Part shown: positions 9,568 to 36,012 of the stretch, piece after piece
Numbering within the stretch: position 1 is the first letter of the stretch
Layout: the number at the start of each line of letters is the position of its first letter
Assembly: GCF_002355595.1 (NCBI RefSeq)
Contig: NZ_AP017422.1
Span: 744,001-808,000, forward strand
From: Filimonas lacunae
GTDB lineage: Bacteria > Bacteroidota > Bacteroidia > Chitinophagales > Chitinophagaceae
DNA: 64,000 nucleotides
Direction: 5' to 3'
Program-made: the position numbers and the translations under genes
Notes under the pieces: model-generated
The model's input: the letters and a program-made list of their open reading frames with translations, nothing else
Told to the model about the DNA's origin: nothing
Databases searched by the model: none

Positions 9568-9861
9568 ATATATGCTTCCCACAATTATCAGGAAACTTCC
9601 TGGTTTAGTCAGGAAGTTTCCTGACTGATTTAGGAACTTTTTTGATATAGACAGGAAGCTTCCTGAATATTTAAGGAAATTTCCTGTCCGTATAAGGAAT
9701 ATTCCTGCCTTTTATAAAAAGCTTCCTGTTTTAATTAAAAATATTCCTGAATAAAGCAGGAAACTTCCTGAACAAAGTTGGATACTTCCTGTAGTTGCCA
9801 GGAACCTTTTTAGTTGAAACAGGAAATTTCCGTATAGGATCAGGAAGTTTTGGGAGTGATT
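9568..9861. repeat. Tandem array of 14 palindromic 21-bp units (array 1)
   Basis: Units start at 9568, 9589, 9610, 9631, 9652, 9673, 9694, 9715, 9736, 9757, 9778, 9799, 9820 and 9841, an exact 21-bp step with no slips. Each has a palindromic core CAGGAANNTTCCTG followed by seven variable bases. The core is intact in the units at 9589, 9610, 9652 and 9757. The right half TTCCTG is kept in nine units; the left half decays in 9715, 9736 and 9778, and the right half in the last three. The central dinucleotide varies (AC, GT, GC, AT, TA, CC). Read on the + strand it gives a heptapeptide pattern R-K/N-L/F/I-P-x-x-x interrupted by stops, so it is not an intact gene. Function unknown. Confidence 0.9.
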
Positions 9862-9880
9862 TGCACAGGCGTGGTACCAT

Positions 9881-9914
9881 AAAAAAAGGCGTCTCCATTA
9901 TTAGGAAACGCCTT
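9881..9914 (-). terminator. Intrinsic terminator of etfBA
   Basis: On the minus strand AAGGCGTTTCC and GGAGACGCCTT pair around a short loop, with one mismatch, and are followed by a run of T. It lies about 20 bp beyond the etfA stop codon and separates the etf operon from array 1. Confidence 0.8.
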
Positions 9915-9935
9915 CATTGTATAAGGTGAGTTATC

Positions 9936-10898
9936 TTATAAACCTTTCAGTTTTTTAATTTCTGCTGTTAATTGTGGCACTACTTCAAAAGCATCACCTA
10001 CAATACCGTAATCTGCGGCCTTAAAGAACGGTGCTTCCGGATCTTTGTTAATCACTACCATTACCTTGCTGCGGTTAACACCTGCCAGGTGTTGGATAGC
10101 ACCAGAAATGCCAATAGCAATGTATAGGTTGGGAGCTACCTGGAAGCCAGTTTGGCCAACGTGCTCGTGGTGTGGACGCCAGTGACTGTCGGCAACCGGG
10201 CGACTACAGGCCAGTGCAGCGTGTAACACATGCGCCAGGTCTTCTACAATACCCCAGTTTTCAGGGCCTTTCAGGCCACGACCACCACTTACCACTACTT
10301 CTGCTTCGGTTAAAGGCACTTCGCCGCTTACTTTGTTTACGGCAGTTACTTTTACACGTGCAGCAGCAGGGGTAATAGCCAGGGCGCTAACAGTAGCAGT
10401 GCCACCGATAGCTTCCACTTTAAAGCTGTTGGGGTTTAACGAAACTACTTTTATAGCAGAGGTAACATTTACATTAGCAAATGCCTTACCGCTGAAAACA
10501 GCTTTTTTCACTACAAAGCCATTGCTGATATCGGGCAGTGCTACCGCGCCGGCCACCAGACCTGCTTTTAAAGCAGCACTAATGCGTGGGGCTATTGCTT
10601 TACCGGTTTGGTTGTGGCTAACTACCACAACAGTAGCGCCGGTACTTTGTACGGCTTCTGCTACCGCTTTGGCATATACCTGGGCATCCAGGCTATTGAA
10701 AGCTTCGTTGGCAACCTGGTGTATGGTGCTTACACCATATTGGCCCAGTGCAGCAACATCGTCCTGCACGGTACCCAGTAATAAGCCAGCAGCAGATACG
10801 CCCAGTTGTTTGGCTACAGCTGCACCATAAGTTAATGCTTCCAGCGAAGCTTTTTTAACATGACCATCAGCGTGGTCTATCAATATTAAAACAGACAT
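9936..10898 (-). CDS. etfA: Electron transfer flavoprotein subunit alpha
   Basis: 320 residues. EtfA forms a heterodimer with EtfB, carries FAD, and passes electrons from acyl-CoA dehydrogenases to the quinone pool via ETF:quinone oxidoreductase. The N-terminal domain begins [22 protein letters not shown]. The C-terminal FAD-binding domain has [12 protein letters not shown] (~205-216), the [25 protein letters not shown] region and [20 protein letters not shown], all characteristic of the family. Length is normal. It follows etfB with a 42-bp gap and ends at a strong terminator, so the two form an operon. Confidence 0.97.
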
Positions 10899-10940
10899 TC
10901 TTTTTCTTTTTTAACTTTTAACGGTTCCCTTTCCTCCTCA

Positions 10941-11684
10941 TTACAGCACCTTGGCTTCTTCGTGCAGCAGGCGTACCAGCTCGGCTACATTGTCGGCAGG
11001 CACCAGCTTCACACCGGCTTTAGCGGGTGGTAATTCAAAGCTTACTACCTGGGTTAAATTATCAGCAGCTACGGGTTCCACCACTTTTAATGGTTTGGTA
11101 CGGGCAGCCATAATACCGCGCATGTTAGGTATACGTTGTTCGGCCACACCTTTCTGGCAGCTTACTACTACCGGTAAGGCTACTTCAGCCACTTCTTCAC
11201 CGCCTTCAATTTCGCGGGTAACTACAGCGGTAGTGCCGTTCAGGTCAAATTTGGTAGCCAGGGCTATATAAGGCGTGTCCAGCAGTTCTGCTACCATACC
11301 ACCTATAGAGGCTCCGTTAAAATCAATGGTTTCTTTACCGGTAAGCACCAGGTCGTAACCACCTTGTTTAGCTATTTCTGCAATTTGCGAAGCAATGTAA
11401 AAGCTATCACCGCTTTCCACGTTTATACGAAAAGCTTCATCACCACCCAATGCCAGCGCTTTGCGTATGATAGGTTCTGTGTCGGCACTGCCGGCAGTTA
11501 CCAGGTGAATTACAGTGGCGGCATCTTTTTCTTTCAGCTCAACGGCTCTTACCAGTGCGTACCATTCATCGTATGGATTAATAATCCATTGTACACCTGC
11601 CTCATCAAATTTTGTGTTGCCATCTTTAAAAGCAATCTTAGACGTAGTGTCAGGTGTTTTACTTACACAGACTAATATCTTCAT
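10941..11684 (-). CDS. etfB: Electron transfer flavoprotein subunit beta
   Basis: 247 residues, the usual length. MKILVCVSKTPDTTSKIAF opens the alpha/beta domain; ALGGDEAFRI, LVLTGKETIDFNGASIGGMVAELL and the AMP-binding region VSCQKGVAEQRIPNMRGIMAARTKPL are family hallmarks. EtfB holds an AMP molecule and docks with partner dehydrogenases. It is the first gene of the etfBA operon. Upstream on the minus strand is TATCTTTA, close to the Bacteroidota -7 element TAnnTTTG. Confidence 0.97.
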   Translation of the reverse strand: MKILVCVSKTPDTTSKIAFKDGNTKFDEAGVQWIINPYDEWYALVRAVELKEKDAATVIHLVTAGSADTEPIIRKALALGGDEAFRINVESGDSFYIASQIAEIAKQGGYDLVLTGKETIDFNGASIGGMVAELLDTPYIALATKFDLNGTTAVVTREIEGGEEVAEVALPVVVSCQKGVAEQRIPNMRGIMAARTKPLKVVEPVAADNLTQVVSFELPPAKAGVKLVPADNVAELVRLLHEEAKVL

Positions 11685-11783
11685 GTTGAAAGGAATTTTG
11701 AACTTTCTTTGCGTAAAGATAAGGGGTCAGGCGGGAAAAGGGTTTACGAACCCGGATTTAGTATTTACGATTTATGGTAATGT

Positions 11784-12095
11784 ATGGATAGAATTGCACG
11801 AATACACCAGTTACTACAGGTTACGCCTAAGGATAATTTTCTGCGGCATGCGCTGGCATTGGAATATAGTAAAGCAGGCGAGCTGGCTAAAGCCAGGCAA
11901 CTGTTTGAAGATATCTTAACAGAATTTCCCGACTACATAGGCAGCTATTACCATTTGGGCAAGCTGCTGGAAGCGATGGGCGAGCCTGCCCTGGCATTGG
12001 AATGGTACGCGAAAGGGATGATAGCAGCCCGCAAGGTGGGCGACCTGCATGCCTATAGTGAGCTGCAAAGCGTACATGACGAACTGGCTTATTAA
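11784..12095 (+). CDS. Small TPR-repeat protein
   Basis: 103 residues comprising about two and a half tetratricopeptide helix pairs: FLRHALALEYSKAGELAKARQLFEDILTEFP and YIGSYYHLGKLLEAMGEPALALEWYAKGM are clear repeat units. No signal peptide or membrane segment, so it should be a cytoplasmic protein-protein adaptor. It is divergent from etfB (99 bp between starts) and 35 bp upstream of the outer-membrane barrel gene on the same strand. Partner unknown. Confidence 0.75.
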   Translation: MDRIARIHQLLQVTPKDNFLRHALALEYSKAGELAKARQLFEDILTEFPDYIGSYYHLGKLLEAMGEPALALEWYAKGMIAARKVGDLHAYSELQSVHDELAY

Positions 12096-12130
12096 ACACA
12101 CCTTTGTTTCGCAAAAAGTGAATAAGTAAA

Positions 12131-13279
12131 ATGATCTATCGCATTGCCGTTGCTGCTTTATTGCTTGCCGGTGGTTACGGTGCACGGGCGCAGGATACAG
12201 TTACTGCGGTGGCACCTAAAAAACACTGGCTGGGAAAGTTTCATCCCGATTCTATTATCAATGGCAAACTCAGTATTATTCCTGTTCCGGTAATTACCAG
12301 CAGCCCTGAAACAGGGCTGCGGGGAGGAGTAGTGTTGCAATACTTTTTAAACACAGGCAGCGGCAAGGATTCCACGCGTAAAACACGTGATTCATACTCT
12401 TACCTGGAAGCCTTGTATTCTACACGCAGGCAAACGGTATTTGAAAGCTACACGCAGATGTTCACGCCCGGTGAAAAGTACTTTTTCCGCCACCGGATGG
12501 GATATGTCAATAACAACGAACGCATTTGGGGCTTTGGCAATAAAACGATGTCGGCGGCTGATTTTGAGAAGGTAACCTATACCCGTTTGTATTTGCAAAC
12601 CAGCTTTACCCGCCAGATCAAGAACAAACTGTTTGCAGGCCTGAACCTGAATGTAAGCAAAACGTACGATGTGGTGGGCACCATCAAAGATTCTAACCTG
12701 CTGGCCGGGCAGCCTGGCGAAAATGGTTATTTGGTAATAGGCCTGGGACCTACCATCATCTGGGACAAGCGCGACCATCCATTGAACACACGTAGTGGAT
12801 GGTATGGCGAGCTGGCTGCCACTCATTACATGCAGTCGGTGGGCAGCGATTTCAGTTACACAGAATATCTGGGCGATATCCGTAAATATTTCCCCCTGAG
12901 AGATAGTAGTGTGCTGGCTTTTCAGGGGTATGCCTTGTTAACAGGCGGCACTGTTCCCTGGCGCGAAAAAGCACGCATGGGCAACAGTATGATTATGCGG
13001 GGATATTTCAGCGGCAGGTTTCGTGATAATCAATATGCGGCCGCACAGGCCGAGTACCGAAAGCCGGTACATCGCTGGGTTACGCTGGCTGTTTTTGCCG
13101 CTGCCGGACAGGTGCAGCATACGGTGGGAAACTTTAATATCAGCGATACCAAATTCGCCGGTGGCATAGGTATGCGGGTATTGGCCAATAAATCAAAACG
13201 TATTTATCTGCGTTTCGATTACGCAGTAAGCTCCGATAAAACATCGGGCTTTTATTTTAAAGTAGGGGAAGCCTTTTAA
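12131..13279 (+). CDS. Outer membrane beta-barrel protein (BamA/surface-antigen type)
   Basis: 382 residues with signal peptide MIYRIAVAALLLAGGYGARAQ. The rest is a series of amphipathic beta strands with PVPVITSSPETGLRGG, GLGPTIIWDKRDHPLNTRSGWYGELAATHY and a GGIGMRVLANKSKRIYLRFDYAVS end, and the chain ends in Phe as outer membrane barrels do. These motifs match the barrel half of the Bac_surface_Ag/Omp85 group, but there are no POTRA domains, so it is not BamA itself. A transporter or lipid-related role is possible but cannot be assigned. Confidence 0.8.
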   Translation: MIYRIAVAALLLAGGYGARAQDTVTAVAPKKHWLGKFHPDSIINGKLSIIPVPVITSSPETGLRGGVVLQYFLNTGSGKDSTRKTRDSYSYLEALYSTRRQTVFESYTQMFTPGEKYFFRHRMGYVNNNERIWGFGNKTMSAADFEKVTYTRLYLQTSFTRQIKNKLFAGLNLNVSKTYDVVGTIKDSNLLAGQPGENGYLVIGLGPTIIWDKRDHPLNTRSGWYGELAATHYMQSVGSDFSYTEYLGDIRKYFPLRDSSVLAFQGYALLTGGTVPWREKARMGNSMIMRGYFSGRFRDNQYAAAQAEYRKPVHRWVTLAVFAAAGQVQHTVGNFNISDTKFAGGIGMRVLANKSKRIYLRFDYAVSSDKTSGFYFKVGEAF

Positions 13280-13286
13280 AAAACGA

Positions 13287-13466
13287 GACCCCTGTGAAAA
13301 CAGGGGTCGTACCAATGGGGGGTTCAAATACCCTCTGGTTCGCAAAAAGTATCTTTAATTACACACAATATTTCTATAAGAACGTTCTTACAGCGCATAC
13401 TGTTGTGTACAACGGCAAGTCATTAAAATGGTTGGGATTGGTTGAAATAAGAGTTGTGGTAGTGGA
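13287..13466 (-). ncRNA. Putative small RNA, promoter and terminator only
   Basis: On the minus strand a TATCTTTG element (13480 down to 13473) matches the Bacteroidota -7 consensus. About 180 bases further on is the hairpin GACCCCTG/CAGGGGTC (13308-13287), followed by TCG and six T, which is a proper intrinsic terminator in this direction. Nothing between them codes for a recognisable peptide. The -33 element is weak. It could also simply be a terminator for antisense noise; no RNA family is recognised. Confidence 0.25.
13374..13393. promoter_or_regulatory. 20-bp near-perfect palindrome, possible operator
   Basis: The 14-bp palindrome TAAGAACGTTCTTA (13377-13390) extends by three bases on each side with a single mismatched pair. 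Such symmetry with a short centre fits a dimeric regulator site better than a terminator, as no T tract follows. The regulator is unknown. Confidence 0.35.
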
Positions 13467-13648
13467 GTGATACAAAGATACGAAGTCCATTTCCTAAAAG
13501 CATGCAAAAACCGGTTATAGGATTATTAAAAATGTCCCGCGAAGCTTAAAAACTGCCATCGTATTCCCGCATTCTGTCTATTTCCCCTTTTCATCAGAGA
13601 TTTAATTCCCCACATTTAAGGCCGCAACTTTTTAAAGGCGGTTATTTT

Positions 13649-14485
13649 ATGAAACAAGCGTTGTGCTTTACTTTTTATAAGCCGTTGGCAGTAACGGCTT
13701 TAATGTGTTCTTTGGCTTTTTCAGCTACAACTACCCAGGCCCAAAGGGGCGGGGATGGTGGCCCACGTAATAACAATGCCCCCCGCAATGGCGGTCAAAA
13801 TCAACGTGTTGAAAACAGGCAGCCCGTTAAACGGCAGCCACAGGCTGCGCCTATGCGTGGCCAGCGTTACGCTGCTATCACCGGGCCTAACGTAAGCATT
13901 AATTTCAGGGGTGTTCCTTACCAGTATTCCAATGGTTATTATTATCGTCCCTACGGTAATTATTACCGCGTGGTGGCGCCACCGCCCGGCATCAGGATAA
14001 ATGTGCTACCTACAGGTTTTATCAGCCTGCATGTAGGCATCAATCCTTTCTTCTTTTTTGATGGCGTTTTTTACCGTCAAACAGTGATCACCAACACAGC
14101 AGGTGCACAGGAAAATAATTATGAAGTGATAGATGCCCCGGTAGGCGCACAGGTGCCCAGCCTGCCAGATGGCACTAAAGATGTGGTTATCAATGGCAAC
14201 CGGTATTACGAGCTGGATGGGACTTATTATGCTGAAATTATTAATAACAATGGCGAAACCTGGTATGAGGTGGCTGGCAAAAACGGAGAGCTGAATACGC
14301 CGGATGCTGCCCCGGAACCACAGGTGGGCGACAAGTATGAGCAGCTACCCGAAACCTGTAAAATAGTAGTGCTGAACGGGCGTAAATATTATGTGTCGTC
14401 TATCAACAACTACTACCAGGAAGTTATAGAAGGCAATAAGCTGTATTACCAACTGGTGGCCAAAGCAGGCGAAGGGCAATTATAA
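13649..14485 (+). CDS. Exported DUF6515-like protein of unknown function
   Basis: 278 residues. A signal peptide (PLAVTALMCSLAFSATTTQAQ) is followed by a low-complexity stretch rich in Arg, Asn, Gln and Pro (~35-70), then Tyr-rich modules: YQYSNGYYYRPYGNYYRVVAPPPG, FFFDGVFYRQ, INGNRYYELDGTYYAEII and LNGRKYYVSSINNYYQEVI. The repeated G-x-Y-Y pattern and PPPGIRINVLP resemble the DUF6515 family of Bacteroidota. It is probably periplasmic or outer-membrane associated. The N-terminal RGG-like segment is basic. Function unknown. Confidence 0.65.
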   Translation: MKQALCFTFYKPLAVTALMCSLAFSATTTQAQRGGDGGPRNNNAPRNGGQNQRVENRQPVKRQPQAAPMRGQRYAAITGPNVSINFRGVPYQYSNGYYYRPYGNYYRVVAPPPGIRINVLPTGFISLHVGINPFFFFDGVFYRQTVITNTAGAQENNYEVIDAPVGAQVPSLPDGTKDVVINGNRYYELDGTYYAEIINNNGETWYEVAGKNGELNTPDAAPEPQVGDKYEQLPETCKIVVLNGRKYYVSSINNYYQEVIEGNKLYYQLVAKAGEGQL

Positions 14486-14508
14486 AAATAGCTTACCAAT
14501 AGCCATCA

Positions 14509-14549
14509 AGCCTGGAATGGGGAATCGCTTCTCCTGTTCCGGGCTTTTT
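14509..14549. terminator. Intrinsic terminator between convergent genes
   Basis: AAGCCTGGAA and TTCCGGGCTT pair across a 19-nt loop, with one G-U-type mismatch, and TTTTTC follows on the + strand. It lies just after the DUF6515-like gene and before the stop of the opposing T9SS gene. Confidence 0.6.
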
Positions 14550-14551
14550 CA

Positions 14552-16927
14552 TTACCGGATCAGCACCGAAGTGCCTTTTAAAAAGAAGTGTTTGCCGCTT
14601 TTGGCTTCTGTGTAAGAAAACATCCATACATAAGCGCCGGGTGGCTGTGCTTCGCCATTAAACACACCATTCCATTTGCCATCGGGTCGGGTGGTATGAA
14701 ATACCATTTGCCCCAAACGGTTAAACACTTTAAAATCCATTTGCGAAGTGGTAAAGCCATTTAGGGGATACAGGTAATCGTTCAGTCCATCGTTATTGGG
14801 CGTAAAGCCGGTGGGTACGGCTATATAACAGCTGTTAAGCACGTGAATGGGGTGTATCACCGTGTCGTAGCAGTTCACCTCGCTTTGCACTACCAGCTTT
14901 ACATAATACAACTGTTCCCGCACAGTAGGCACGGCATAAGTTTGCCCGGGTGGGGTATGCTGTGCACTGATATTGCCGTTGCCAAATGTCCATTCGTAAC
15001 GGATGATGTTACCGTAACTTTCGTTAATATACAATGCCTGATCGTTAGGGCATAAGGTATCCGGCTGTATAGAAAAAGCGGCTTTTAACACATTGGTAAG
15101 CACCACCTGCCGGGTGCTGCTATCGCTGCAAACTCCATTGCTCACTACCAGTTTAATATTTTTGGTGCCAAACACTTTGTACACTTTCACCGGGTTTTGC
15201 AGTTTGCTGGAATCGTTGCCATCATAATACCAGTTCCATTGATTGACACCATTGGCGCCGTTATGCGAGAGTACTACACTGTCAATGGTGCAATGTAAAA
15301 AAAGCTGGTAGGTGAAATTGGCATTGACCGTATCGCTGGTAGCAAACCTGATGGTGTTGCCCACAGGTGTTTCCTGCCAGCATTCTGTTAACAGGGTGTT
15401 GCCATCGGTGCCGGTTTGCACGTTTACCTGGTAAGCGCCGGCTGTGAGTACCGGTGCATTAAAATACAGATCAATAGAGTCGGTTAAGTTATTGCTACAG
15501 ATGCTTTCGGCGCGGGTAATGGTAATAGTGGTGGGGCCCGTGATGGTAAAATCACTGCCATTGGTGGCCACAGAACCGCATTGTACTTTACGGGTAAGCG
15601 CCACCCTTATTTTTTGCACCCGGCAGGTAACCGGTGTTACCCTTTTCAGCAACGATACGGGCTGTGGCGGAATGATGAAAGAACGGGTGTTGTCGCCGGC
15701 CAGTATATACTGTCCACATTGGCTGGAAATGCCATTGCCGTCGGTACCGGTGCCAATAACAACGGTATAGGTACCTGCGGTGGTAAGGCGTTTGTCAAAA
15801 TACAGCGTAATGGTATTATCTGTGTTATTGCTGGTGCACGATCCTTTAGCGCCAATAATGCCCACGGGCATAGGCCCGGTGATGGTAAAATCGCTGCCAT
15901 CGGCTGCTATGGTGGCACAGTCAATAGGCTGGGTAAACACAATTTGCAGGCTGTCCGGGGCACAGGGCAGGGGCTTGATGCTATCTATATACACCAGCGC
16001 CGGCGCACTTACCGAAAAGTCAACGTGTTCTCCGGCAGGAATATCCCGGTCGCAATAGTCCAGCAGCGTGTTAGCATCACTACCATTTTGAATAACGAGT
16101 GAGTAATTGCCTGGTGGCAACCGCTGGTTCAGTGTCAGCACTATCGAATCCAGATCAAATCCATTATTACACCCGATTCCCGTGGCTGAGACAATGTTAA
16201 TGCCCGGGGTGTTGAGGGTAAAATCGCTACCATCTGTGGCCAGGCTACTGCATTTTACTTTTTTATTGAGTTTGAGCCGTACTGTTTGGGTATTACAATA
16301 ATATTCTCCGTTGGCAAGATGAGGTAACAGCGGGTCGGTGATTCCGGCGGTGCCACCGCCAAAACTGAGCGAGTAGCCGCTTTGATTGGTTACTGTAAAA
16401 TGGCTGATCATCAGCAGGTAAATATGCCCCTGTATCAGGGTAGGCATGCTGCTGAAGGTGGGCCTGTTGTCTGAGGGTATGGAGGCGCATTCAATATGTG
16501 TAACACCCGTTGCCGAAGCCCCTGTTTTATCATAGGTACCGGCCCAGTTTCCTGTTACAATCAGCGCGGGATTGGTATATACATCATCCGGATTGGCCCC
16601 GGTAATATCATACAATTGCCAGTCGTAATCGTCTGTAGCTTCCACCGGATCAATCAGAAAACCCAGGGTGCCGGCGGTGTAACAGGTAAATTTATACCAG
16701 AACGCATTTAAATCACCATAAGCGGCTCCGTCTCCCGCGCAGGTGGGTACAGGGAGGTTTCGTCCCGAACAGGCTGGCACAGTGGCCATATGAAAAGTGT
16801 CGTACCCACAAATAGGAAATGCTGTGGAGGGTGTTTGCCCTGTGGCACACTGCGCCTGCGCCGGCACACAGCGAAACAGCATTAACACTATTATAAGTAG
16901 CAAAAACTGCCTGCTGGGTAAAGGCAT
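14552..16927 (-). CDS. Large secreted protein with T9SS gliding-type C-terminal domain
   Basis: 791 residues. A signal peptide (LLLIIVLMLFRCVPAQAQ) is followed by a Cys-rich N-terminal domain (CATGQTPSTAFPICGYDTF...), three repeated ~105-residue SbsA/Big_5-like Ig domains (each with a GSDFTL/GSDFTI strand and a G(S/T)DxNxxxxxC turn), a PKD-like domain (YINESYGNIIRYEWTFGNG) and a final gliding-motility-associated domain (VPTGFTPNNDGLNDYLYPLNG ... RLGQMVFHT ... FFLKGTSVLIR). That last domain is the type B type IX secretion signal. The protein should be exported through the outer membrane and may act in adhesion. Confidence 0.9.
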   Translation of the reverse strand: MPLPSRQFLLLIIVLMLFRCVPAQAQCATGQTPSTAFPICGYDTFHMATVPACSGRNLPVPTCAGDGAAYGDLNAFWYKFTCYTAGTLGFLIDPVEATDDYDWQLYDITGANPDDVYTNPALIVTGNWAGTYDKTGASATGVTHIECASIPSDNRPTFSSMPTLIQGHIYLLMISHFTVTNQSGYSLSFGGGTAGITDPLLPHLANGEYYCNTQTVRLKLNKKVKCSSLATDGSDFTLNTPGINIVSATGIGCNNGFDLDSIVLTLNQRLPPGNYSLVIQNGSDANTLLDYCDRDIPAGEHVDFSVSAPALVYIDSIKPLPCAPDSLQIVFTQPIDCATIAADGSDFTITGPMPVGIIGAKGSCTSNNTDNTITLYFDKRLTTAGTYTVVIGTGTDGNGISSQCGQYILAGDNTRSFIIPPQPVSLLKRVTPVTCRVQKIRVALTRKVQCGSVATNGSDFTITGPTTITITRAESICSNNLTDSIDLYFNAPVLTAGAYQVNVQTGTDGNTLLTECWQETPVGNTIRFATSDTVNANFTYQLFLHCTIDSVVLSHNGANGVNQWNWYYDGNDSSKLQNPVKVYKVFGTKNIKLVVSNGVCSDSSTRQVVLTNVLKAAFSIQPDTLCPNDQALYINESYGNIIRYEWTFGNGNISAQHTPPGQTYAVPTVREQLYYVKLVVQSEVNCYDTVIHPIHVLNSCYIAVPTGFTPNNDGLNDYLYPLNGFTTSQMDFKVFNRLGQMVFHTTRPDGKWNGVFNGEAQPPGAYVWMFSYTEAKSGKHFFLKGTSVLIR

Positions 16928-17040
16928 AATCTGGCGTTATCTGGTATTAAGATTGCAAAACCGGGCTAAACGTTGCTAAAAATATAAATTAAATTGTAAT
17001 ATGGAGGAAATGCCGTGTTTTTTACATAAATGCGAAACCT

Positions 17041-17048
17041 TACATTTG
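17041..17048 (+). promoter_or_regulatory. -7 element upstream of glnS
   Basis: TACATTTG matches the Bacteroidota primary-sigma consensus TAnnTTTG, 22 bases before the glnS ATG. A T-rich -33 position lies 19 bases upstream. Confidence 0.5.
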
Positions 17049-17070
17049 CCAATACTGAAACCGTCATTGA

Positions 17071-18729: not shown

Positions 18730-18738
18730 TCTTATTGC

Positions 18739-19368: not shown

Positions 19369-19383
19369 GTAGTCATCTATAAG

Positions 19384-25373: not shown

Positions 25374-25381
25374 AGAGGCGA

Positions 25382-26035: not shown

Positions 26036-26069
26036 ATAAAAAGTGTAAACGGTCGGGTATGATAATATG

Positions 26070-26543
26070 TTAAACGTGATGATACTTTTCGTTACGCAAT
26101 ATAGTGCAGGCCCTGTATACCTGCTCGGCCAGTACCAGCCGCACCAGCATATGTGGCAGCACCAGCTTACTCAGGCTCCACACAAAATTGGCGCGTTTGG
26201 TAATACTATCGTCTACACCAAAAGCGCCGCCTATTAAAAATACCAGGCGCTTGCTGCTTTCATTGGCTTTTTGCTGTATCAGTTTTGCCAGCTCGGGCGA
26301 AGACAGTTGTTTACCTCTTTCGTCCAGTAAAATCAGCTGATCGTCGGGCTGTAATGCCTGTAATATCAGGGCCGCTTCCTGCTTTTTCAACTCGGCTTCC
26401 TGCATTACACCTGCATTTTTGGGCGGGGCAATAATTTGCCAGCTTACCGGAAAATACCGGGTAATACGGTCGGTAAAGTCCTCCACACCCTGCTTTACAT
26501 ACGCCTCATGGGCTTTGCCTACGGAATAGAAAAGTATTTTCAC
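26070..26543 (-). CDS. rlmH: 23S rRNA (pseudouridine1915-N3)-methyltransferase
   Basis: 157 residues, the standard length of this SPOUT methyltransferase, which methylates pseudouridine 1915 in helix 69 of 23S rRNA using SAM. LLDERGKQLSSPELAKLIQ, FLIGGAFGVDDSI and SLSKLVLPHMLVRLVLAEQVYRACTILRNEKYHH are the family's core and form the trefoil-knot cofactor pocket. It is divergent from the MG2-like gene and upstream of the rhomboid gene. Confidence 0.97.
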   Translation of the reverse strand: MKILFYSVGKAHEAYVKQGVEDFTDRITRYFPVSWQIIAPPKNAGVMQEAELKKQEAALILQALQPDDQLILLDERGKQLSSPELAKLIQQKANESSKRLVFLIGGAFGVDDSITKRANFVWSLSKLVLPHMLVRLVLAEQVYRACTILRNEKYHHV

Positions 26544-26643
26544 ACAGGCAAGATAGGTAATAGTTGTAATTGGCCAACCATCCTATACTGTCCTGAAATG
26601 GGTTTCTTCCATCGGTAAATGATTTATATTCGAAACCTGTCAT

Positions 26644-29070: not shown

Positions 29071-29122
29071 GTGCGCGCAATACTTTTCTTTTTTGATATT
29101 TGCAGTCCTTTAAACGAAAAGT

Positions 29123-30088
29123 ATGCGTGTTGCTATTAACGGAATGGGTAGGATTGGTCGTTTGTTATACAGACGGCTGGCTACCTGTACAGAAGTGGAA
29201 CTGGTTGCGGTGAACGATATAATGGAAACGGACCACCTGATGTATCTGCTGAAATACGATTCGGTGTATGGTACCTACACAGGCCCCATACCTGCCGAAG
29301 GTGTTCGTTTTTTGCAGTGCGCCGATCCGCGTCAATTGCCCTGGAAAGAGTTGCAGGTAGATGTGGTGCTGGAATGTACAGGTGTTTTTGCCAATAGTGC
29401 CGGGGCGGCCCTGCACCGCGAAGCAGGCGCTTCCCGCGTAATGCTGTCCAGTACCGGCCCATCGGATGTGCCTTTGTTGATTTATGGTTTTAACCAGCAT
29501 CATTTAACGGCCGATACCACTTTGTTTTCGCCGGGTGGTTGTATGACCAACTGCTCTACACATATCCTTTACATACTCAATGCTATAGGTATAGAATCGG
29601 TGCAGGTAAACATGCTGCATAGTTATACTTCGCGCCAGGAACTGGTAGACGGGCCTAATAAAAACTTTCGCAGGGGCAGAGCGGCAGCGGAGTCAATTAT
29701 CCCGTTTGAGGTGGACCTGTTTCAGTCGCTGGAACGCCTTTTCCCCAATTTGCAGGGTAAAATAGCCACTATTTCAACGCGAATGCCGGTAGCTAATGGG
29801 GCTATGGCCGATTTTACCGTGCAAATGAAAGCCGATATTACCGCCGCACAAATCAACGAGTTGTTTAAAAAAGCGGCCGAAAACGAATTTGACGGGGTGG
29901 TGGAATACACTACCGACCCGCTGGTATCACTGGATATTAAGGGCAACACCCACTCATGTATTGTAGATGGCACACTTACTTCGGTGGTTGGCAGGCAGTT
30001 AAAGCTGATTGCCTGGTTTGATAACGAATATGGCTATACCAGCCGCATGATAGACTGGTTATTACACTGGACAGACATGCAGAAATAA
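29123..30088 (+). CDS. GAPDH-family dehydrogenase
   Basis: 321 residues. N-terminal NAD(P)-binding MRVAINGMGRIGRLLYRRL and VNDI (Asp that favours NAD) lead to the active site GGCMTNCSTH with Cys140, and LHSYTSRQ supplies His166. The C-terminal RGRAAAESIIP, VPVANGAMADFTV-like region and IAWFDNEYGYTSRM are family features. The active site GGCMTNC departs from the SxSCTTN of glycolytic GAPDH, and the chain is about 10-15 residues shorter, so it may be a specialised paralogue (for example erythrose-4-phosphate- or arsenate-type) rather than the main glycolytic enzyme. No neighbour decides this. Confidence 0.8.
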   Translation: MRVAINGMGRIGRLLYRRLATCTEVELVAVNDIMETDHLMYLLKYDSVYGTYTGPIPAEGVRFLQCADPRQLPWKELQVDVVLECTGVFANSAGAALHREAGASRVMLSSTGPSDVPLLIYGFNQHHLTADTTLFSPGGCMTNCSTHILYILNAIGIESVQVNMLHSYTSRQELVDGPNKNFRRGRAAAESIIPFEVDLFQSLERLFPNLQGKIATISTRMPVANGAMADFTVQMKADITAAQINELFKKAAENEFDGVVEYTTDPLVSLDIKGNTHSCIVDGTLTSVVGRQLKLIAWFDNEYGYTSRMIDWLLHWTDMQK

Positions 30089-30136
30089 CCATTTTATTTG
30101 TTTATTTTGCTAAACTAATTAACAATTAACCTCAAT

Positions 30137-30628
30137 ATGATCAAATTACAAGTGATAGGAAACCTGGGTAAAGATTGCGTGCTGAATAATGTGAACGGAA
30201 GAAGCGTAATCAATTTCAGTGTGGCTCATACTGAAAAATTCAGGGATGCTACCGGTAATACGAAAGATAGAACTATTTGGGTAGAGTGTGCTTACTGGAC
30301 TGATAAAACCGGTATTGCGCCTTACCTGAAAAGAGGTACTTCGGTATATGTGGAAGGAAACCCCGAAGTACGTACCTACCAAACCAACGACGGACGCCAG
30401 GGCGCCAGCTTAACTATGCGTGTAGTAAGCATTCAGTTGCTGGGTGGCGGTAACCGTGAAGGCGGTGGTGGCGAAGGTGGTGGTGGTAACTACGGCCAAC
30501 AGGGTGGTAACAGTTATGGTGGAGGCGGTAATGCAAATTACGGCGGTGGTAACAATTACAATTCTCCGGCATCCAATGCTCCAGCAGCCGGTGAAATAAC
30601 AGAACCATTGGATGATCTTCCGTTTTAA
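30137..30628 (+). CDS. ssb: Single-stranded DNA-binding protein
   Basis: 163 residues. The N-terminal OB fold begins MIKLQVIGNLGKDCVLNNVNGRSVINFSVAH with KDRTIWVECAYW and LKRGTSVYVEGNPEVRTY. It is followed by a Gly/Asn-rich linker (~113-150) and the acidic tip EPLDDLPF, which recruits replication and repair proteins. Length and layout are normal. The Ldh2-type dehydrogenase gene starts only 2 bp after its stop. Confidence 0.97.
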   Translation: MIKLQVIGNLGKDCVLNNVNGRSVINFSVAHTEKFRDATGNTKDRTIWVECAYWTDKTGIAPYLKRGTSVYVEGNPEVRTYQTNDGRQGASLTMRVVSIQLLGGGNREGGGGEGGGGNYGQQGGNSYGGGGNANYGGGNNYNSPASNAPAAGEITEPLDDLPF

Positions 30629-30630
30629 AC

Positions 30631-31707
30631 ATGGAAAAAATGTACGCATATAGCCGGCTGTATAATTTTACAGTCGGCATATTTACCAAAATAGGTTGTA
30701 ATGCCAAAGACGCAGCGCTTGCTGCCGAAGTTTTATTAAGTGCCGATATCCGTGGAGTAGACAGCCACGGCGTAGCCCGGTTAAGCGGCTATGTTCGTTT
30801 ATGGGAAGCCGGCCGTATCAATGCCAATCCTCAGATTAAAATAGTGCATGAAACCCCGTCTACTGCGGTGGTGGATGGCGATGCAGGCCTGGGCCTGGTA
30901 GTAGCTCCTTTTGCTATGCAGGTGGCTATTGAAAAGGCTAAAGTAGCCGGTACCGGCTGGGTGGCTGTGCGCAACAGTAACCATTACGGTATTGCCGGTT
31001 ATCATGCTATGATGGCTTTGCAGCACGATATGATTGGTATGTCTATGACCAATGCCAGTGCATTGGTAGCGCCTACCTTTAGTGTAGAAAAAATGCTGGG
31101 TACTAACCCCATTGCAGTGGCTATTCCCGCTCAGGAACAACCTCCGTTTGTAGCCGATTTTGCCACTACCACAGCTGCTAATGGCAAGCTGGAAATATTA
31201 CAGCGCAAGCAGGCCAGCGCGCCTATAGGGTGGGTGCAGGATAAAGCCGGCCATGCTTCCAGCAATGCCAATGAATTAAAGCAGGGTGGTTCGTTATTGC
31301 CTTTGGGTAGCGACCGTGAACATGGCAGCCATAAAGGCTATGCCCTGGGCAGTATTGTTGATATATTCTCTGCTGTACTCAGTGGCGCCAGCTATGGCCC
31401 CTGGGCGCCGCCTTTTCCTGCCTATGTGCCTATGCCCGAAAACATGCCGGGCCAGGGGCTGGGACACTTTTTCGGCGCTATGCGTGTAGACGCGTTTCGC
31501 CCGGCTGATGAGTTTAAAAGCCATATGGACAACTGGATTACCCGTTTCCGCAAGGCAAAACCATCAGAAGGTTACGAGAAGGTGTTGATTCCAGGCGATC
31601 CGGAAAGGGAAATGGAAGCAGCCCGCAGAAAAGACGGTATTCCCGTTGTGGCGGCGGTGACAGAAGATTTACAACAATTGGCGCAGAAGTTCGGAATTGA
31701 GCTTTAA
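30631..31707 (+). CDS. Malate/L-lactate dehydrogenase (Ldh2/MDH2) family oxidoreductase
   Basis: 358 residues. The family is unrelated to the usual Rossmann lactate dehydrogenases and reduces or oxidises 2-oxo/2-hydroxy acids with NAD(P). ADIRGVDSHGVARLSGYV, VDGDAGLGLVVAPFAM, VRNSNHYGIAGYHAMMAL (active-site His), LGTNPIAVAIP, HKGYALGSIVDIFSAVLSGA and DPEREMEAARRKDGIPV are all characteristic. No signal peptide, so cytoplasmic. It starts 2 bp after the ssb stop and is probably co-transcribed with it, although no functional link is evident. Substrate undecided (malate, ureidoglycolate or another hydroxy acid). Confidence 0.9.
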   Translation: MEKMYAYSRLYNFTVGIFTKIGCNAKDAALAAEVLLSADIRGVDSHGVARLSGYVRLWEAGRINANPQIKIVHETPSTAVVDGDAGLGLVVAPFAMQVAIEKAKVAGTGWVAVRNSNHYGIAGYHAMMALQHDMIGMSMTNASALVAPTFSVEKMLGTNPIAVAIPAQEQPPFVADFATTTAANGKLEILQRKQASAPIGWVQDKAGHASSNANELKQGGSLLPLGSDREHGSHKGYALGSIVDIFSAVLSGASYGPWAPPFPAYVPMPENMPGQGLGHFFGAMRVDAFRPADEFKSHMDNWITRFRKAKPSEGYEKVLIPGDPEREMEAARRKDGIPVVAAVTEDLQQLAQKFGIEL

Positions 31708-31810
31708 CTTCGGCAACCTTTTCAAAACAAGTTGAAAGAGTACATTTTGTCATCTAGTCAGTAAGACATCGAGTCAAGTGTTCTGAACTGGTATTAAATA
31801 TCCCTCAGCG

Positions 31811-33130
31811 ATGAAAATTATGAAGTTTGGCGGCACCAGCGTTGGTAAGCCGGAACGTATGCACCAGGTGGCACAGCTGATAACCAAAGACAGCGATGCT
31901 AAAATTGTGGTGTTAAGTGCATTAAGTGGAACTACCAATGCATTGGTAGGTATTAGTGATTCTATTGCAGGCGGCGACCGCGAAGCAGCCAAACGAAAGA
32001 TTGACGAGCTGGAAGCTCATTACAGGAAATTTGTACCCGAACTGGTGATAAAGGAAGAGGCACGTGCTAAGGCTAACGCTATTGTAACGGAGCATTTTGA
32101 ATTTTTAAACATCATACTGCGCATTAGCTTTAGCGAAGCGCTGAATAAAGATATTCTGGCACAGGGCGAGCTGATGAGCACCAAGCTGTTCAGCGTGTAC
32201 CTGGAAGAGCAGGGTATTGACCACCTGCTGTTGCCGGCACTGGAGTTTATGAGCATTGATAGCAACGAAGAGCCTAACCTGCCTGCTATCACTAATAAAC
32301 TGGACCAGCTGTTGAAACAACATAGCCATAAAAAAATGTTCATTACCCAGGGCTATATTTGCCGCAACTCCCGTGGTGAGGTAGATAACCTGAAAAGAGG
32401 GGGTAGTGATTATACTGCTTCCCTGATAGCGGCAGCAGCCCACGCTACTGTATGTGAAATATGGACGGATATTGATGGCATGCACAACAACGATCCACGT
32501 ATTGTTGACAAAACATTGCCTATTGAGCAGTTAAGCTTTGACGAAGCGGCTGAGCTGGCTTACTTCGGTGCTAAAATTCTGCATCCTACCTGTATCTGGC
32601 CTGCCCAGTTAGGTAATGTGCCTGTAAAGCTGCTGAACACGATGCAGCCCGAAGCCAAAGGCACTACCATCCAGGAAGAAGCGGGTACTGTAGGCGTGAA
32701 AGCAGTAGCAGCTAAAGACGGTATCATTGCTATCAAAATCAAGAGCAGCCGTATGTTGCTGGCTTATGGTTTTTTAAGAAAGGTGTTTGAAGTATTTGAA
32801 AAATACAAAACGCCGATAGATATGATCACCACTTCGGAAGTTGCAGTATCGGTTACTATTGATACCGATGCACATTTAGATCATATCATTAAAGAGCTGG
32901 AACCATTTGGTCATGTTGAAGTAGATACCAACCAGAGCATTGTTTCTATCGTGGGTAACGAAATAGCACAAACGCCCGACGTGTTAAAGCGTTTGTTTGA
33001 AACACTGAACAGTGTGCCTGTGCGTATGGTAAGTTACGGTGGCAGCCCGCATAATATTTCACTGCTGGTGCCAAGCGAGCATAGAACCAAAACATTACAG
33101 TTGTTAAACGCAGGCATTTTTGGCTTGTAG
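31811..33130 (+). CDS. lysC: Aspartate kinase, monofunctional
   Basis: 439 residues. It phosphorylates aspartate, the first step to lysine, threonine, methionine and diaminopimelate. The N-terminal kinase has MKIMKFGGTSVGKPERM, LVLSALSGTTNALV-like region and RGGSDYTASLIAAAAHA. The C-terminal tandem ACT domains (GIIAIKIKSSRMLLAYGFLRKVFEVF; IVSIVGNEIAQTPDVLKRLFETL) would bind an end product. There is no fused homoserine dehydrogenase. A strong terminator follows. I see no lysine riboswitch in the 103 bp upstream. Confidence 0.95.
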   Translation: MKIMKFGGTSVGKPERMHQVAQLITKDSDAKIVVLSALSGTTNALVGISDSIAGGDREAAKRKIDELEAHYRKFVPELVIKEEARAKANAIVTEHFEFLNIILRISFSEALNKDILAQGELMSTKLFSVYLEEQGIDHLLLPALEFMSIDSNEEPNLPAITNKLDQLLKQHSHKKMFITQGYICRNSRGEVDNLKRGGSDYTASLIAAAAHATVCEIWTDIDGMHNNDPRIVDKTLPIEQLSFDEAAELAYFGAKILHPTCIWPAQLGNVPVKLLNTMQPEAKGTTIQEEAGTVGVKAVAAKDGIIAIKIKSSRMLLAYGFLRKVFEVFEKYKTPIDMITTSEVAVSVTIDTDAHLDHIIKELEPFGHVEVDTNQSIVSIVGNEIAQTPDVLKRLFETLNSVPVRMVSYGGSPHNISLLVPSEHRTKTLQLLNAGIFGL

Positions 33131-33158
33131 TAAATAATTGTATCAATATACTTTGCCA

Positions 33159-33189
33159 GGGGCCGGGAGTAATCCCGGCCCCTTTTTTT
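33159..33189 (+). terminator. Intrinsic terminator of lysC
   Basis: GGGGCCGGGA (33159-33168), loop GTAA and TCCCGGCCCC (33173-33182) form a perfect 10-bp stem followed by seven T. It lies 28 bp after the lysC stop. Confidence 0.92.
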
Positions 33190-33330
33190 GGGTGTAAGCG
33201 TACACTACACTGTAATAAAACCGTACAGGTTTACACGTTTGTTTTTTACTTACCGCTTGTAAATCAATGCATAGAAAGGTTGGCATTATTCTGTGCATAT
33301 ACCTAACTTACCTAAGAAACCAGCACGCTT

Positions 33331-35706
33331 ATGATGTTGCAAAGCCACTGTAAAGTAGCCTTCAGAAATCTTTGGAAAAACAGGGGATTTTCTGCTATTA
33401 ATATAGCCGGCCTGGCATTGGGCATGGCTTGCAGCCTGCTGATATTTTTATGGATACAGGACGAAAAAGGAATAAACGGGTTTCATAAAAATATTAAGCA
33501 GATTTACCAGGTATATGAAGCACAGCATTACGATGGTAAAATAGAAGGGCAATATGCTACGCCGGGCTTGCTGGCACAGGAACTGGAAAAGCAGGTGCCG
33601 GCAGTGGAAATGGCTGTTAGCATGGCGGAAATATATGGGAATACCTTTTCAGTGGGCACCAAAGCGCTGAAACAAAAAGGCACAGCAGCCGGGAAACACT
33701 TCTTCCAGATATTCAGTTATCCTTTGTTACAGGGCAATGCAGCAGATGCGCTTGCCACACCGGAAAGTATTGCTATATCCCGCTCTATGGCGGTGAATTT
33801 TTTTGGTAGTCCCGAAAAGGCGATGCTGCAAACGATCCGTTACGAAAATGAACGCGACTATACGGTAAAAGCCGTGTTTGAAGATATTACCCCGCAATCG
33901 TCTATGGTGTTTGATTTTCTGTTAAACTGGGATGGTTATGTTGAACACCAGGATTGGTTAAAAGATTGGGGCAATCATATGCCTGCTACTTATGTACTGT
34001 TTCGCCCAGGCACTAATGTTGCTGCTGTTGGTGCAAAGGTTAAAAATTTTATTGAACGTTTTGAAGATGATTCCAAATATGGGTTTCATGTAGAGATAGG
34101 GTTTCAGCCGTATAAAGAGGTGTATTTAAAAAGCCAGTTTGAAAACGGCAAGCCTGCTTGGGGGCGTTTTGAATATGTAAACCTGTTTACGCTGGTGGCT
34201 ATTTTTATACTGGTAATAGCCTGTATCAATTTTATGAACCTTACTACCGCCCGCTCGGTAAAAAGGGCGCGTGAAATAGGCGTAAGAAAAGTAATTGGCG
34301 CTAACAGAATGTCGCTGGTGTGGCAGTTTATGGGCGAAGCGGTGTTAATAGCACTGATTGCGGCGTTGCTGGCTTTATTGCTGATAATACTTTCCTTGCC
34401 GTTTTTTAACCAGGTAACCGGTAAGCAAATAGCTATACCTATATTCTCCGGTCAATTTTTAGGTGTAATGCTGGCATTAATACTGATCACAGGTTTTTTA
34501 TCAGGTAGCTACCCGGCATTATTCCTGGCAGGTTTTAACCCGGTACGGGTGTTAAAAGGCGGCTCATTGCAGGCAGGCCCTGCAGCTTTGTGGTTTCGCA
34601 AATCACTGGTAGTATTTCAGTTTACTTTATCTATCATCCTGATTATTGCCACCATATTAATTTCGCAGCAGGTGGACTATGTGCAGCAGTCTAACCTGGG
34701 TTATAACCGGGAGAACCTGGTGGCTATTGATATCGATAATGAAATGTCTAAACATTTATCTTCTTTTACTACCGAAGCAGCGCGCATCAGTGGCATTAAC
34801 AGCATGAGTGAAGTAAGCCAGGTGCCTGTAAATGCCGAAAACAGTACATTGGGCGTAAGGTGGCCTGGTAAAGATCCTAAGAACAAAGTGGCGTTTACGC
34901 AGCTGGGAGTAGGATATGATTTTATTAAAACCATGAAGCTAACCGTAGTGGAAGGCCGTGATTTTTCAAAAAGCTTTTTATCTGATTCTGTAGCATATAT
35001 TATTAACGAAGCCGCTGCTAAGAAGATAAATAATAAAAACATTTTAGGTATGCCCTTTACTTTCTGGGGTAAAGAGGGCAAGGTGATAGGAGTGGTGAAA
35101 GATTTTCATTTTCAATCGTTACATCATAAAATAAACCCGCTGGTATTGCGAATTACTACGCCCACTTATATCAATTCTTTATTGGTAAGACTGGAGCCGG
35201 GCCACACGGAAGCCACATTGGGCAGCCTGGAAAAGCTATGGAAACAGGTAAACCCGAAGTTTCCTTTTTCGTATCAGTTCTCTTCCGAAGAATATGCAAA
35301 ACTGTATAAGAGCGAGCAGGTGATTAAGAGCCTGTCTAATGTATTTGCATTTCTGGCCATTGTAATTTCCTGCCTGGGGTTGTTAGGTTTATCCATATTC
35401 ACTGCCGAACAACGTACCAAAGAGTTTGGTGTGCGTAAGGTGTTGGGAGCTAATTTTATCACCTTATGCCGTTTGCTCACCACCAACTTTGTGCTACTGG
35501 TAGGGTTGGCTTTTATAATAGCTGCTCCTATAGCCTGGTGGGCCATGTATAAATGGTTACAGCATTATGCTTATCATACTGCTATCAGCTGGTGGATTTT
35601 TGTAACGGCAGGCCTATTGGCTATGCTTATTGCATTGTTAACGGTGTGCTTTCAAGCCATTAAAGTGGCCCGTACCAATCCGTTGAAAAGCCTGAAAACG
35701 GAGTAG
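33331..35706 (+). CDS. MacB/FtsX-type ABC transporter permease
   Basis: 791 residues, same two-module layout as the gene at 6875-9268: first helix after FRNLWKNRGFSAINIAGLALGMAC, a periplasmic domain, an FtsX core with INFMNLTTARSVKRAREIGVRKVIG, a second periplasmic domain and a last FtsX core with EQRTKEFGVRKVLGANF, ending AIKVARTNPLKSLKTE. It has no adjacent ATPase. These permeases are numerous in Bacteroidota and probably act with a shared MacB-type ATPase; substrate unknown. The second 21-bp array begins 13 bp after its stop codon. Confidence 0.93.
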   Translation: MMLQSHCKVAFRNLWKNRGFSAINIAGLALGMACSLLIFLWIQDEKGINGFHKNIKQIYQVYEAQHYDGKIEGQYATPGLLAQELEKQVPAVEMAVSMAEIYGNTFSVGTKALKQKGTAAGKHFFQIFSYPLLQGNAADALATPESIAISRSMAVNFFGSPEKAMLQTIRYENERDYTVKAVFEDITPQSSMVFDFLLNWDGYVEHQDWLKDWGNHMPATYVLFRPGTNVAAVGAKVKNFIERFEDDSKYGFHVEIGFQPYKEVYLKSQFENGKPAWGRFEYVNLFTLVAIFILVIACINFMNLTTARSVKRAREIGVRKVIGANRMSLVWQFMGEAVLIALIAALLALLLIILSLPFFNQVTGKQIAIPIFSGQFLGVMLALILITGFLSGSYPALFLAGFNPVRVLKGGSLQAGPAALWFRKSLVVFQFTLSIILIIATILISQQVDYVQQSNLGYNRENLVAIDIDNEMSKHLSSFTTEAARISGINSMSEVSQVPVNAENSTLGVRWPGKDPKNKVAFTQLGVGYDFIKTMKLTVVEGRDFSKSFLSDSVAYIINEAAAKKINNKNILGMPFTFWGKEGKVIGVVKDFHFQSLHHKINPLVLRITTPTYINSLLVRLEPGHTEATLGSLEKLWKQVNPKFPFSYQFSSEEYAKLYKSEQVIKSLSNVFAFLAIVISCLGLLGLSIFTAEQRTKEFGVRKVLGANFITLCRLLTTNFVLLVGLAFIIAAPIAWWAMYKWLQHYAYHTAISWWIFVTAGLLAMLIALLTVCFQAIKVARTNPLKSLKTE

Positions 35707-35718
35707 GTGAGGAGAATA

Positions 35719-36012
35719 TTCCCACTGGCGGAGCTTTCAGGAGTTGTGTTGGGAAACCGCCAAAGCCTGCTGGAAAACAAAGGAGAACTGTTGACGGAAA
35801 AATGCTCCTTGTTGACACTGTTAGGCTCATTGATGAAGCAATATGGCCAGCTGATGGAAGCTAGAGGTACACTGTTGTAGTAATAATACCAACTGGCGGA
35901 GTTTTCGCGCCAACTGTCGGAATAATACTGCCAGCTGGTAGGAAAAAAGTGTGGACTGGCGGAGAAATAATGCCAGCTGGCGGATTTTCCACGCCAGCTG
36001 GCGAAATATTAT
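35719..36012. repeat. Tandem array of 14 palindromic 21-bp units (array 2)
   Basis: Units start at 35719, 35740, 35761, 35782, 35803, 35824, 35845, 35866, 35887, 35908, 35929, 35950, 35971 and 35992, an exact 21-bp step. The core is the palindrome CGCCAGCTGGCG followed by GA and about seven variable bases. It is complete in the last unit and nearly so in the one at 35971. Units near the permease are more diverged, but CTG stays in phase in 11 of 14 and TG in all. In the CTG frame the array reads as degenerate heptads such as LLENKGE-LLTEKCS-LLTLLG, with stops. It fills the whole gap between two convergent genes and overlaps the last 4 bases of the esterase gene. Function unknown. Confidence 0.88.

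What the first reader, a model, noticed from the sequence alone, without database searches (positions are those of the whole stretch)
9568..36012. Two unrelated palindromes share one 21-bp architecture: a possible undescribed repeat class
Arrays 1 and 2 have no core sequence in common but share period (21), unit count (14), a palindromic core of 12-14 bp, a tail of about 7 bp, intergenic placement and adjacency to a MacB/FtsX-type permease gene (one 300 bp upstream of it, the other 13 bp downstream). A shared architecture with changing sequence suggests a mechanism that fixes length and symmetry, such as a protein family with evolving specificity, or a replication or repair process that copies 21-nt units.
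Basis: partly seen in the sequence, partly recalled or inferred. Interest (0 to 1): 0.82.

Follow-up and report, generated by a model that had tools for sequence, protein, structure and literature searches.

The report
Two-helix-turn palindromic repeat arrays across genome
A bacterium of the Chitinophagaceae carries many DNA patches in which a different short mirror-symmetric word is repeated every 21 letters, exactly two turns of the double helix; fixed-length, variable-sequence repeats of this kind were known, but the symmetry and locked spacing seen here suggest that something symmetric reads the DNA.

Summary
Both arrays are real period-21 arrays, too degenerate for Tandem Repeats Finder. 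In 79 stretches plus the window (1.64 of 7.81 Mb), 17 of 361 intergenic segments have period 21; periods 19, 20, 22 and 23 have 0-1. Nineteen intergenic arrays with different cores were listed. Reverse-complement symmetry beats a mirror control in 17 of 19 (1 of 11 in genes); 337 of 339 unit spacings are exactly 21. Whole arrays are copied: array 1 has one 76% paralog, another array four full and three partial copies. At the one fully syntenic site tested, the closer congener lacks the array. In the random sample arrays avoid divergent gaps (0 of 14), but in a sister species they do not. The permease link is coincidence (0 of 26 other flanking proteins). The class is not undescribed: Subirana and Messeguer reported 20-21-nt repeats of constant length and variable sequence in many bacteria. 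Best reading: dyad sites two helical turns apart, bound by a symmetric protein. Rivals: neutral satellite, or decayed heptad-repeat genes (one family has a coding signal).

The parts
9566..9859 (.). Array 1: 13-14 units of 21 bp, core CAGGAA-NN-TTCCTG plus a 7-bp free tail
   Evidence: lag-21 scan, repeat finder, symmetry and trim, spacing all 21
35709..36005 (.). Array 2: about 14 periods of 21 bp, partly decayed, some units with CCAGCTGG
   Evidence: lag-21 scan, spacing all 21; whole-unit symmetry not significant
9885..9915 (-). Terminator-like hairpin with T run behind the ETF alpha gene; array 1 lies beyond it
   Evidence: 12-pair stem, T-rich tail; a consensus match only
9936..10898 (-). 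Electron transfer flavoprotein alpha subunit gene, its stop faces array 1
   Evidence: Pfam ETF and ETF_alpha
6875..9268 (-). MacB/FtsX-type permease gene, start 298 bp from array 1
   Evidence: Pfam MacB_PCD, FtsX
33331..35706 (+). MacB/FtsX-type permease gene, ends just before array 2
   Evidence: Pfam MacB_PCD, FtsX
36009..36923 (-). Alpha/beta hydrolase gene, convergent with the permease; its stop abuts array 2
   Evidence: Pfam BD-FAE, Peptidase_S9

Best explanation
The arrays are dispersed, mostly noncoding satellite elements made of dyad-symmetric sites set exactly two turns of B-DNA apart, so that every site faces the same side of the helix. The most likely reason for the locked spacing is cooperative binding by a two-fold symmetric DNA-binding protein that coats the array between transcription units, where it could act on nucleoid structure, supercoiling or insulation. 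Arrays grow by duplication of blocks of 21n bases (42, 63, 105), are copied whole to new intergenic places by an unknown route, and drift apart in sequence while core and spacing are held. Shown: period, symmetry in most arrays, spacing, core-versus-tail difference for array 1, whole-array copies, absence at one syntenic site of a congener. Inferred: the protein, its cooperativity and its function.
For: Period: 17 of 361 intergenic segments at z>6 for period 21, 0-1 for 19, 20, 22, 23. Spacing: 337 of 339 unit steps are 21, two are 20, although lag-21 identity averages only 0.455. Symmetry: the reverse-complement score exceeds the mirror score in 17 of 19 intergenic arrays (one tie, one miss) but in 1 of 11 period-21 stretches inside genes. 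Core versus tail: array 1 against its paralog 144/164 core bases identical, 53/96 tail bases, no gap in 288. Dyad partners within a unit do not compensate each other overall (1370 observed, 1351 expected, z 1.0, 16 arrays), as expected of two half-sites read by a dimer and not of a hairpin or cruciform. Placement in the random sample of G000, with the rRNA-flanked gap of L240 left out: 7 of 14 array gaps convergent against 13 of 93 others (p 0.004), 0 of 14 divergent against 31 of 93 (p 0.009). Whole-array copies.
Against: No trans-acting protein is identified. The core is hardly used outside arrays (G002: 9 of 9 exact sites are in arrays; G000: 7 of 10), so it is not the site of an ordinary regulator. 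An array is absent from the same site in a congener, which does not look like a needed function. Eight of 19 arrays fail the column-permutation symmetry test at 0.01, and in three of eight arrays from other genomes mirror beats reverse complement. Covariation is uneven: L260 has z +3.5 and L082 -3.5. Placement behind genes does not hold elsewhere: of six placeable G002 arrays two are convergent, two tandem, two divergent, and the array-1 paralog lies between divergent gene calls. The L082 family shows a coding signal.
Confidence: 0.4

Rival explanations
1. Neutral or selfish satellite DNA: a copying or slippage process that works in 21-nt steps amplifies any suitable seed, and arrays survive where they do no harm. 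The symmetry would come from the process, not from a bound protein.
For: Presence and absence between congeners (rny-zapA gap 1112 bases in G000, 355 in G002), whole-array copies, higher-order blocks of 42 and 105 bp, no shared neighbour gene, no constant placement across species. A 7-nt period with changing sequence dominates in other Chitinophagaceae, and 7-nt slippage by DNA polymerase has been proposed (Mrazek, as reported in PMC4679880; passages seen).
Against: Core and tail of array 1 and its paralog diverged unequally (144/164 against 53/96). In copies C, D, E of the L082 family the flanks have 3 indels with 39 substitutions, the array none with 81 (p 0.04; p 0.01 if the 147 changes of five copies are set against the same flanks); all three indels lie in the left flank, none in the right. 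Lag 7 and 14 are below background inside the arrays, so they are not 7-mers in disguise.
Confidence: 0.32
2. The arrays are living or decayed genes of heptad-repeat proteins: 21 bp is seven codons, so period, 21n duplications and lack of frameshifts follow from coding.
For: The L082 family: one frame is open in all five full copies (0 stops, 7.3 expected on column shuffles, min-over-frames p 0.0025) with more synonymous changes than expected (53 against 37.9, p 0.004). Four other arrays show fewer stops in their best frame than shuffles at p 0.02 or less (L067, L079, L102, L104). Five of 19 arrays of G000 and six of eight from other genomes have one frame without stops.
Against: Fourteen of 19 arrays of G000 have stops in every frame, arrays 1 and 2 as many as shuffles (p 0.40, 0.48). 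No codon-position bias between array 1 and its paralog (28/23/19, p 0.42) or in the G002 pair (14/7/10). No conserved start or stop in the L082 copies: an in-frame TAG stands at the left end of B, D and E (read by eye; frame lengths). No Pfam or NCBIfam match. Coding does not predict dyad symmetry (1 of 11 coding controls). Frame +2 and the antisense frame share wobble columns, so part of the synonymous excess may be column structure.
Confidence: 0.17
3. RNA-level element: transcribed hairpin arrays acting as terminators, mRNA stabilisers or sponges, as proposed for 52-nt Bacillus repeats.
For: Position behind genes in the G000 sample; terminator-like hairpins are over-represented around array 1 (8 found, 0.5 expected); covariation is positive in one array (L260, z 3.5).
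Against: No compensatory changes overall (z 1.0 over 16 arrays); array 1 lies beyond a longer terminator-like hairpin of the ETF alpha gene; array 2 shows no excess of such hairpins (1 found, 0.4 expected); no Rfam match at the two window arrays.
Confidence: 0.08

Closest known systems
Constant-length, variable-sequence 20-21-nt tandem repeats of bacteria (Subirana and Messeguer)
   Same: Fixed 20-21-nt repeat, several families per genome, families shared by close relatives, some 40-41-nt forms, mostly noncoding; the authors note two helical turns and suggest a polymerising protein (PMC8161180; abstract, introduction, section 3.3, discussion, tables and passages seen). [quoted passage not shown] For satellites of another bacterium they speak of transposition (PMC6749651, passages only).
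   Different: Here the units are more degenerate, dyad-symmetric over the 21-bp unit, and spaced almost without exception. The words palindrome and Bacteroidetes do not occur in the main text of PMC8161180. The 2020 paper that founded the class could not be read, so what it says of symmetry or placement is unknown to me.
REP/BIME elements (gamma-proteobacteria)
   Same: Palindromic units of 20-40 bp (abstract start of PMC3733652), in clusters, often behind genes (recalled)
   Different: REPs share a sequence within a genome and go with a Y1 transposase (recalled); here many sequences and one Y1 transposase match in the genome
Heptanucleotide repeats (Mrazek; TAACTGA repeats of Beggiatoaceae, some Cyanobacteria and five Bacteroidetes, PMC4679880, passages)
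   Same: Fixed unit length; abundant with varied sequence in related Chitinophagaceae here
   Different: No 7-nt substructure in the 21-bp arrays
Iteron arrays at plasmid origins and parC-type partition sites (recalled)
   Same: Tandem protein sites spaced about two helical turns
   Different: Iterons occur at one or few places and belong to a known replication or partition protein; here many places and no protein known

Membership tests
Constant-length 20-21-nt bacterial tandem repeats | Repeat length fixed at 20-21 nt while sequence differs between arrays | tested here: met
   period 21; different cores
Constant-length 20-21-nt bacterial tandem repeats | Several families per genome, shared with close relatives | tested here: met
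Constant-length 20-21-nt bacterial tandem repeats | Not protein-coding | tested here: inconclusive
   14 of 19 have stops in every frame; one family shows a coding signal
Constant-length 20-21-nt bacterial tandem repeats | Found by a consensus tandem repeat search | tested here: not met
   window arrays only: TRF finds 2.3 copies of array 1 and none of array 2; the authors' own program was not run. A matter of degeneracy, not of kind
REP/BIME | RAYT-type Y1 transposases in number | tested here: not met
   one Y1_Tnp match in the genome; whether it is a RAYT was not tested
REP/BIME | One palindrome family dispersed in the genome | tested here: not met
   many cores
Heptanucleotide repeats | 7-nt period | tested here: not met
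   lag 7 and 14 below background
Heptad-repeat protein genes | One frame open over the array | tested here: not met
   arrays 1 and 2 have stops in all six frames; 5 of 19 arrays do have an open frame, and the L082 family keeps it in five copies
RNA hairpin arrays | Compensatory changes in the stem | tested here: not met
   z 1.0 over 16 arrays (range -3.5 to +3.5)
Iteron or partition arrays | Cognate binding protein encoded beside the array | tested here: inconclusive
   no shared flanking family among 30 proteins; a distant gene is not excluded

The most novel reading that the evidence does not exclude
A clade-restricted family of symmetric DNA-coating proteins with evolving specificity, each paired with its own satellite: the arrays would be a prokaryotic counterpart of centromere-like or boundary satellites, in which spacing (two helical turns) and two-fold symmetry are fixed by the protein while the sequence turns over.
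Probability: 0.14. Interest if true: 0.88.

Novelty: new variant of a known kind. Interest (0 to 1): 0.56.

Why it matters
Bacterial repeats of fixed length and free sequence are in print without an established explanation. This genome offers a handle: the units are dyad-symmetric, the spacing is held while tails drift, and half-sites do not covary overall. Together these point to recognition of double-stranded DNA, and they make the question testable by pull-down, footprinting and comparison of strains.

Tried and rejected
RAYT/REP: one Y1 transposase match. Permease association: 0 of 26 flanking proteins outside the window. Seven-mer origin: rejected by lag 7 and 14. Isolated regulator sites: 0 of 9 in G002, 3 of 10 in G000; six other genomes searched have 1-5 such sites. 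RNA hairpin: no covariation overall. Transposition with target duplications or terminal inverted repeats: none seen by eye at the ends of the L082 copies. AAA_14/DUF4143 gene beside copy C considered as a partner; not pursued. My first symmetry test (column permutation) is lenient, since 3 of 11 coding stretches pass it at 0.01; the mirror control was added for that reason. My first orientation count misplaced two gaps in the background and took the gap of L240 as convergent; Rfam shows an rRNA operon there, so that its two arrays lie between a gene end and an rRNA operon on the same strand; one search is the corrected count. No structure prediction or fold search was run.

Limits: arrays of this genome were counted in 1.64 of 7.81 Mb (79 stretches and the window). 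Stretches L252 and L260 were taken from regions known to hold arrays and are left out of the orientation count; L105 was chosen for an array and left out. Gene calls are from my own codon-score caller. Three of the 19 arrays overlap a call: L080 and L094 low-scoring ones (74 and 119 aa), array 2 only at its edge. Of the flanks of these arrays, 30 proteins were scanned with Pfam; the right flanks of L104 and L233, both of L240, and the nearest short call beside the array-1 paralog were not. Arrays cut by indels would be seen as shorter arrays, so the spacing count leans towards 21. BLAST opens a few gaps between some L082 copies that equal lengths do not need. At the ETF alpha locus the far neighbour differs in G002, so only rny-zapA is a clean absence. 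I lowered the best reading from 0.42 to 0.40 and raised the satellite rival from 0.30 to 0.32 after the placement recount.
Full report
What is there. The window is part of an unnamed 7.81-Mb single-contig genome (G000:C1:744001-808000). The best named match of its ETF alpha protein is a Filimonas MAG at 82% identity, among other Chitinophagaceae (near-identical records may be left out there). Arrays 1 and 2 are the two strongest lag-21 signals of the window. Array 1 reads CAGGAA-NN-TTCCTG plus a free 7-bp tail, 13-14 times; array 2 is more worn and only some of its units show CCAGCTGG.

It is a genome-wide class with one period. I took stretches of the genome, called genes with a codon-score caller and scored every intergenic segment of 150 bases or more for periods 6 to 45 (79 stretches plus the window, 1.64 Mb). 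Of 361 segments, 17 pass z>6 at period 21, and 16 of 246 at period 42; 19, 20 and 23 give none and 22 gives one; the next best, period 9, gives five, and multiples of three give one to five, probably missed coding. Over all sequence, 30 period-21 stretches were found, 11 in genes and 19 taken as intergenic. Without the two window arrays and the two in targeted stretches that is 15 arrays in 1.54 Mb, or roughly 75 in the genome if evenly spread. Two species of the same genus gave 1 in 360 kb and 3 in 320 kb. Eighty loci of other Chitinophagaceae and relatives (1.42 Mb) gave five period-21 segments of 395; by eye only L146 is a true 21-bp array, the other four are 7-mer arrays.

Anatomy. Unit spacing is 21 in 337 of 339 steps although lag-21 identity averages 0.455, range 0.37 to 0.57. 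Lag 42 and 63 are as strong as lag 21 (excess 0.235 and 0.189 against 0.194), so blocks of several units are duplicated; one relative of array 2 has a nearly exact 105-bp block (5 x 21). The consensus units are dyad-symmetric: the reverse-complement score beats a mirror-image control in 17 of 19 arrays, with one tie and one miss, against 1 of 11 coding stretches; in arrays from other genomes 5 of 8. Column permutation is passed at 0.01 by 11 of 19 but also by 3 of 11 coding stretches. Dyad partners do not covary within units over 16 arrays taken together (z 1.0), though two single arrays depart, L260 upwards and L082 downwards, each by 3.5.

Copies and turnover. Array 1 has a colinear paralog 2.4 Mb away, 76% identical over 288 bases without a gap; core bases agree in 144 of 164 cases, tail bases in 53 of 96. 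The L082 array has four more full-length copies at 84-88% and three partial ones. Copies A and B share little beyond the array, while C, D and E share about 90 to 155 bases more on each side. In the sister species G002 four arrays carry the array-1 core, and two of them are 89% identical over 279 bases. Between rny and zapA, G000 has 1112 bases with an array; G002, with 96% identical RNase Y and the same two neighbours, has 355 and no array. Of 15 other genomes at rny, none shows a period-21 array with z>6.5 in the flank (one, L310, has a 6.3 signal in called genes). Beside ETF alpha neither G001 nor G002 has an array, but the far neighbour differs there. In C, D and E the flanks show 3 indels with 39 substitutions, the array none with 81 (p 0.04).

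Placement. In the random G000 sample 15 gaps of 300 bases or more bear arrays: 7 convergent, 8 tandem (one of them before an rRNA operon, L240), none divergent. With L240 left out, 7 of 14 are convergent against 13 of 93 other gaps (p 0.004) and 0 of 14 divergent against 31 of 93 (p 0.009). In 6 of the 7 tandem gaps between protein genes the array is nearer the upstream gene's stop than the next start (read; exception L092). This does not carry over: of six placeable arrays of G002 two are convergent (L207, L208), two tandem (L210, L294) and two divergent (L209, L295), and the array-1 paralog lies between divergent calls; L065 and the G009 array are convergent. Flanking proteins share no family; MacB/FtsX occurs only at the two window arrays (2 of 30 proteins scanned).

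Coding or not. Fourteen of 19 arrays have stops in every frame; arrays 1 and 2 have as many as shuffles. The L082 family is the exception: one frame is open in all five full copies, fewer stops than shuffles (p 0.0025) and an excess of synonymous changes (p 0.004); two of its three partial copies have stops in that frame. Array 1 against its paralog shows no codon-position bias. So some arrays may be, or may come from, heptad-repeat reading frames, but this does not account for the symmetry or for array 1.

Mechanism. Strict two-turn spacing, conserved symmetric cores with drifting tails, and half-sites that change independently are what a two-fold symmetric protein bound on one face of double-stranded DNA would leave. 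I put 0.40 on the protein-array reading, 0.32 on a neutral or selfish satellite, 0.17 on heptad genes and 0.08 on RNA.

What is known. Subirana and Messeguer (PMC8161180; abstract, introduction, section 3.3, discussion, tables and passages seen) describe repeats of constant size, 20-21 or 52 nt, and variable sequence, with species-specific families, and suggest a polymerising protein; they note that 20-21 nt is two helical turns, and that in 52-nt repeats short sequences and their reverse often occur together. In PMC6749651 (passages) they speak of satellite transposition in another bacterium. Their 2020 paper is not held. A passage search of PMC8161180 found neither palindrome nor Bacteroidetes; searches with Chitinophaga or Chitinophagaceae gave nothing relevant. 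So the kind is known; the dyad-symmetric, phase-locked form is a variant that I did not find described in searches of the open-licence library.

Noticed in passing
Survey of L106-L185; L117, L127, L130, L131, L140: In other Chitinophagaceae the dominant intergenic period is 7 (25 of 582 segments; periods 5, 6, 8, 10, 11, 13 none, 9 and 12 one or two). Upstream of one orthologous kinase gene, 5 of 16 gaps long enough to score (49 orthologs) hold heptamer arrays, with four different heptamers: same place and period, changed sequence.
   Followed up: partly
L164, L117, L106: Several heptamer arrays form inverted arms of diverged 7-mers, for example GGTTACA repeats facing TGCAACC repeats (by eye).
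   Followed up: no
L323:1386-2146 and paralogs L324, L325: Three copies of the L082 array lie in a larger dispersed unit that in L323 runs into the start of an AAA_14/DUF4143 ATPase gene.
   Followed up: partly
L079 and L094 arrays: Two arrays lie directly behind genes with rve integrase-core domains, that is transposase-like genes.
   Followed up: no
L240:6655-7124: Two period-21 arrays lie about 660 bases before a 16S rRNA gene.
   Followed up: no
L297:3273-3373, L298, L299: Between rny and zapA a stretch of about 100 bases with a terminator-like hairpin is kept in all three species of the genus held, possibly a small RNA.
   Followed up: no
window 9350-9380: Two near-exact copies of ATGTGCGCTTATGAT just upstream of the permease start.
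   Followed up: no
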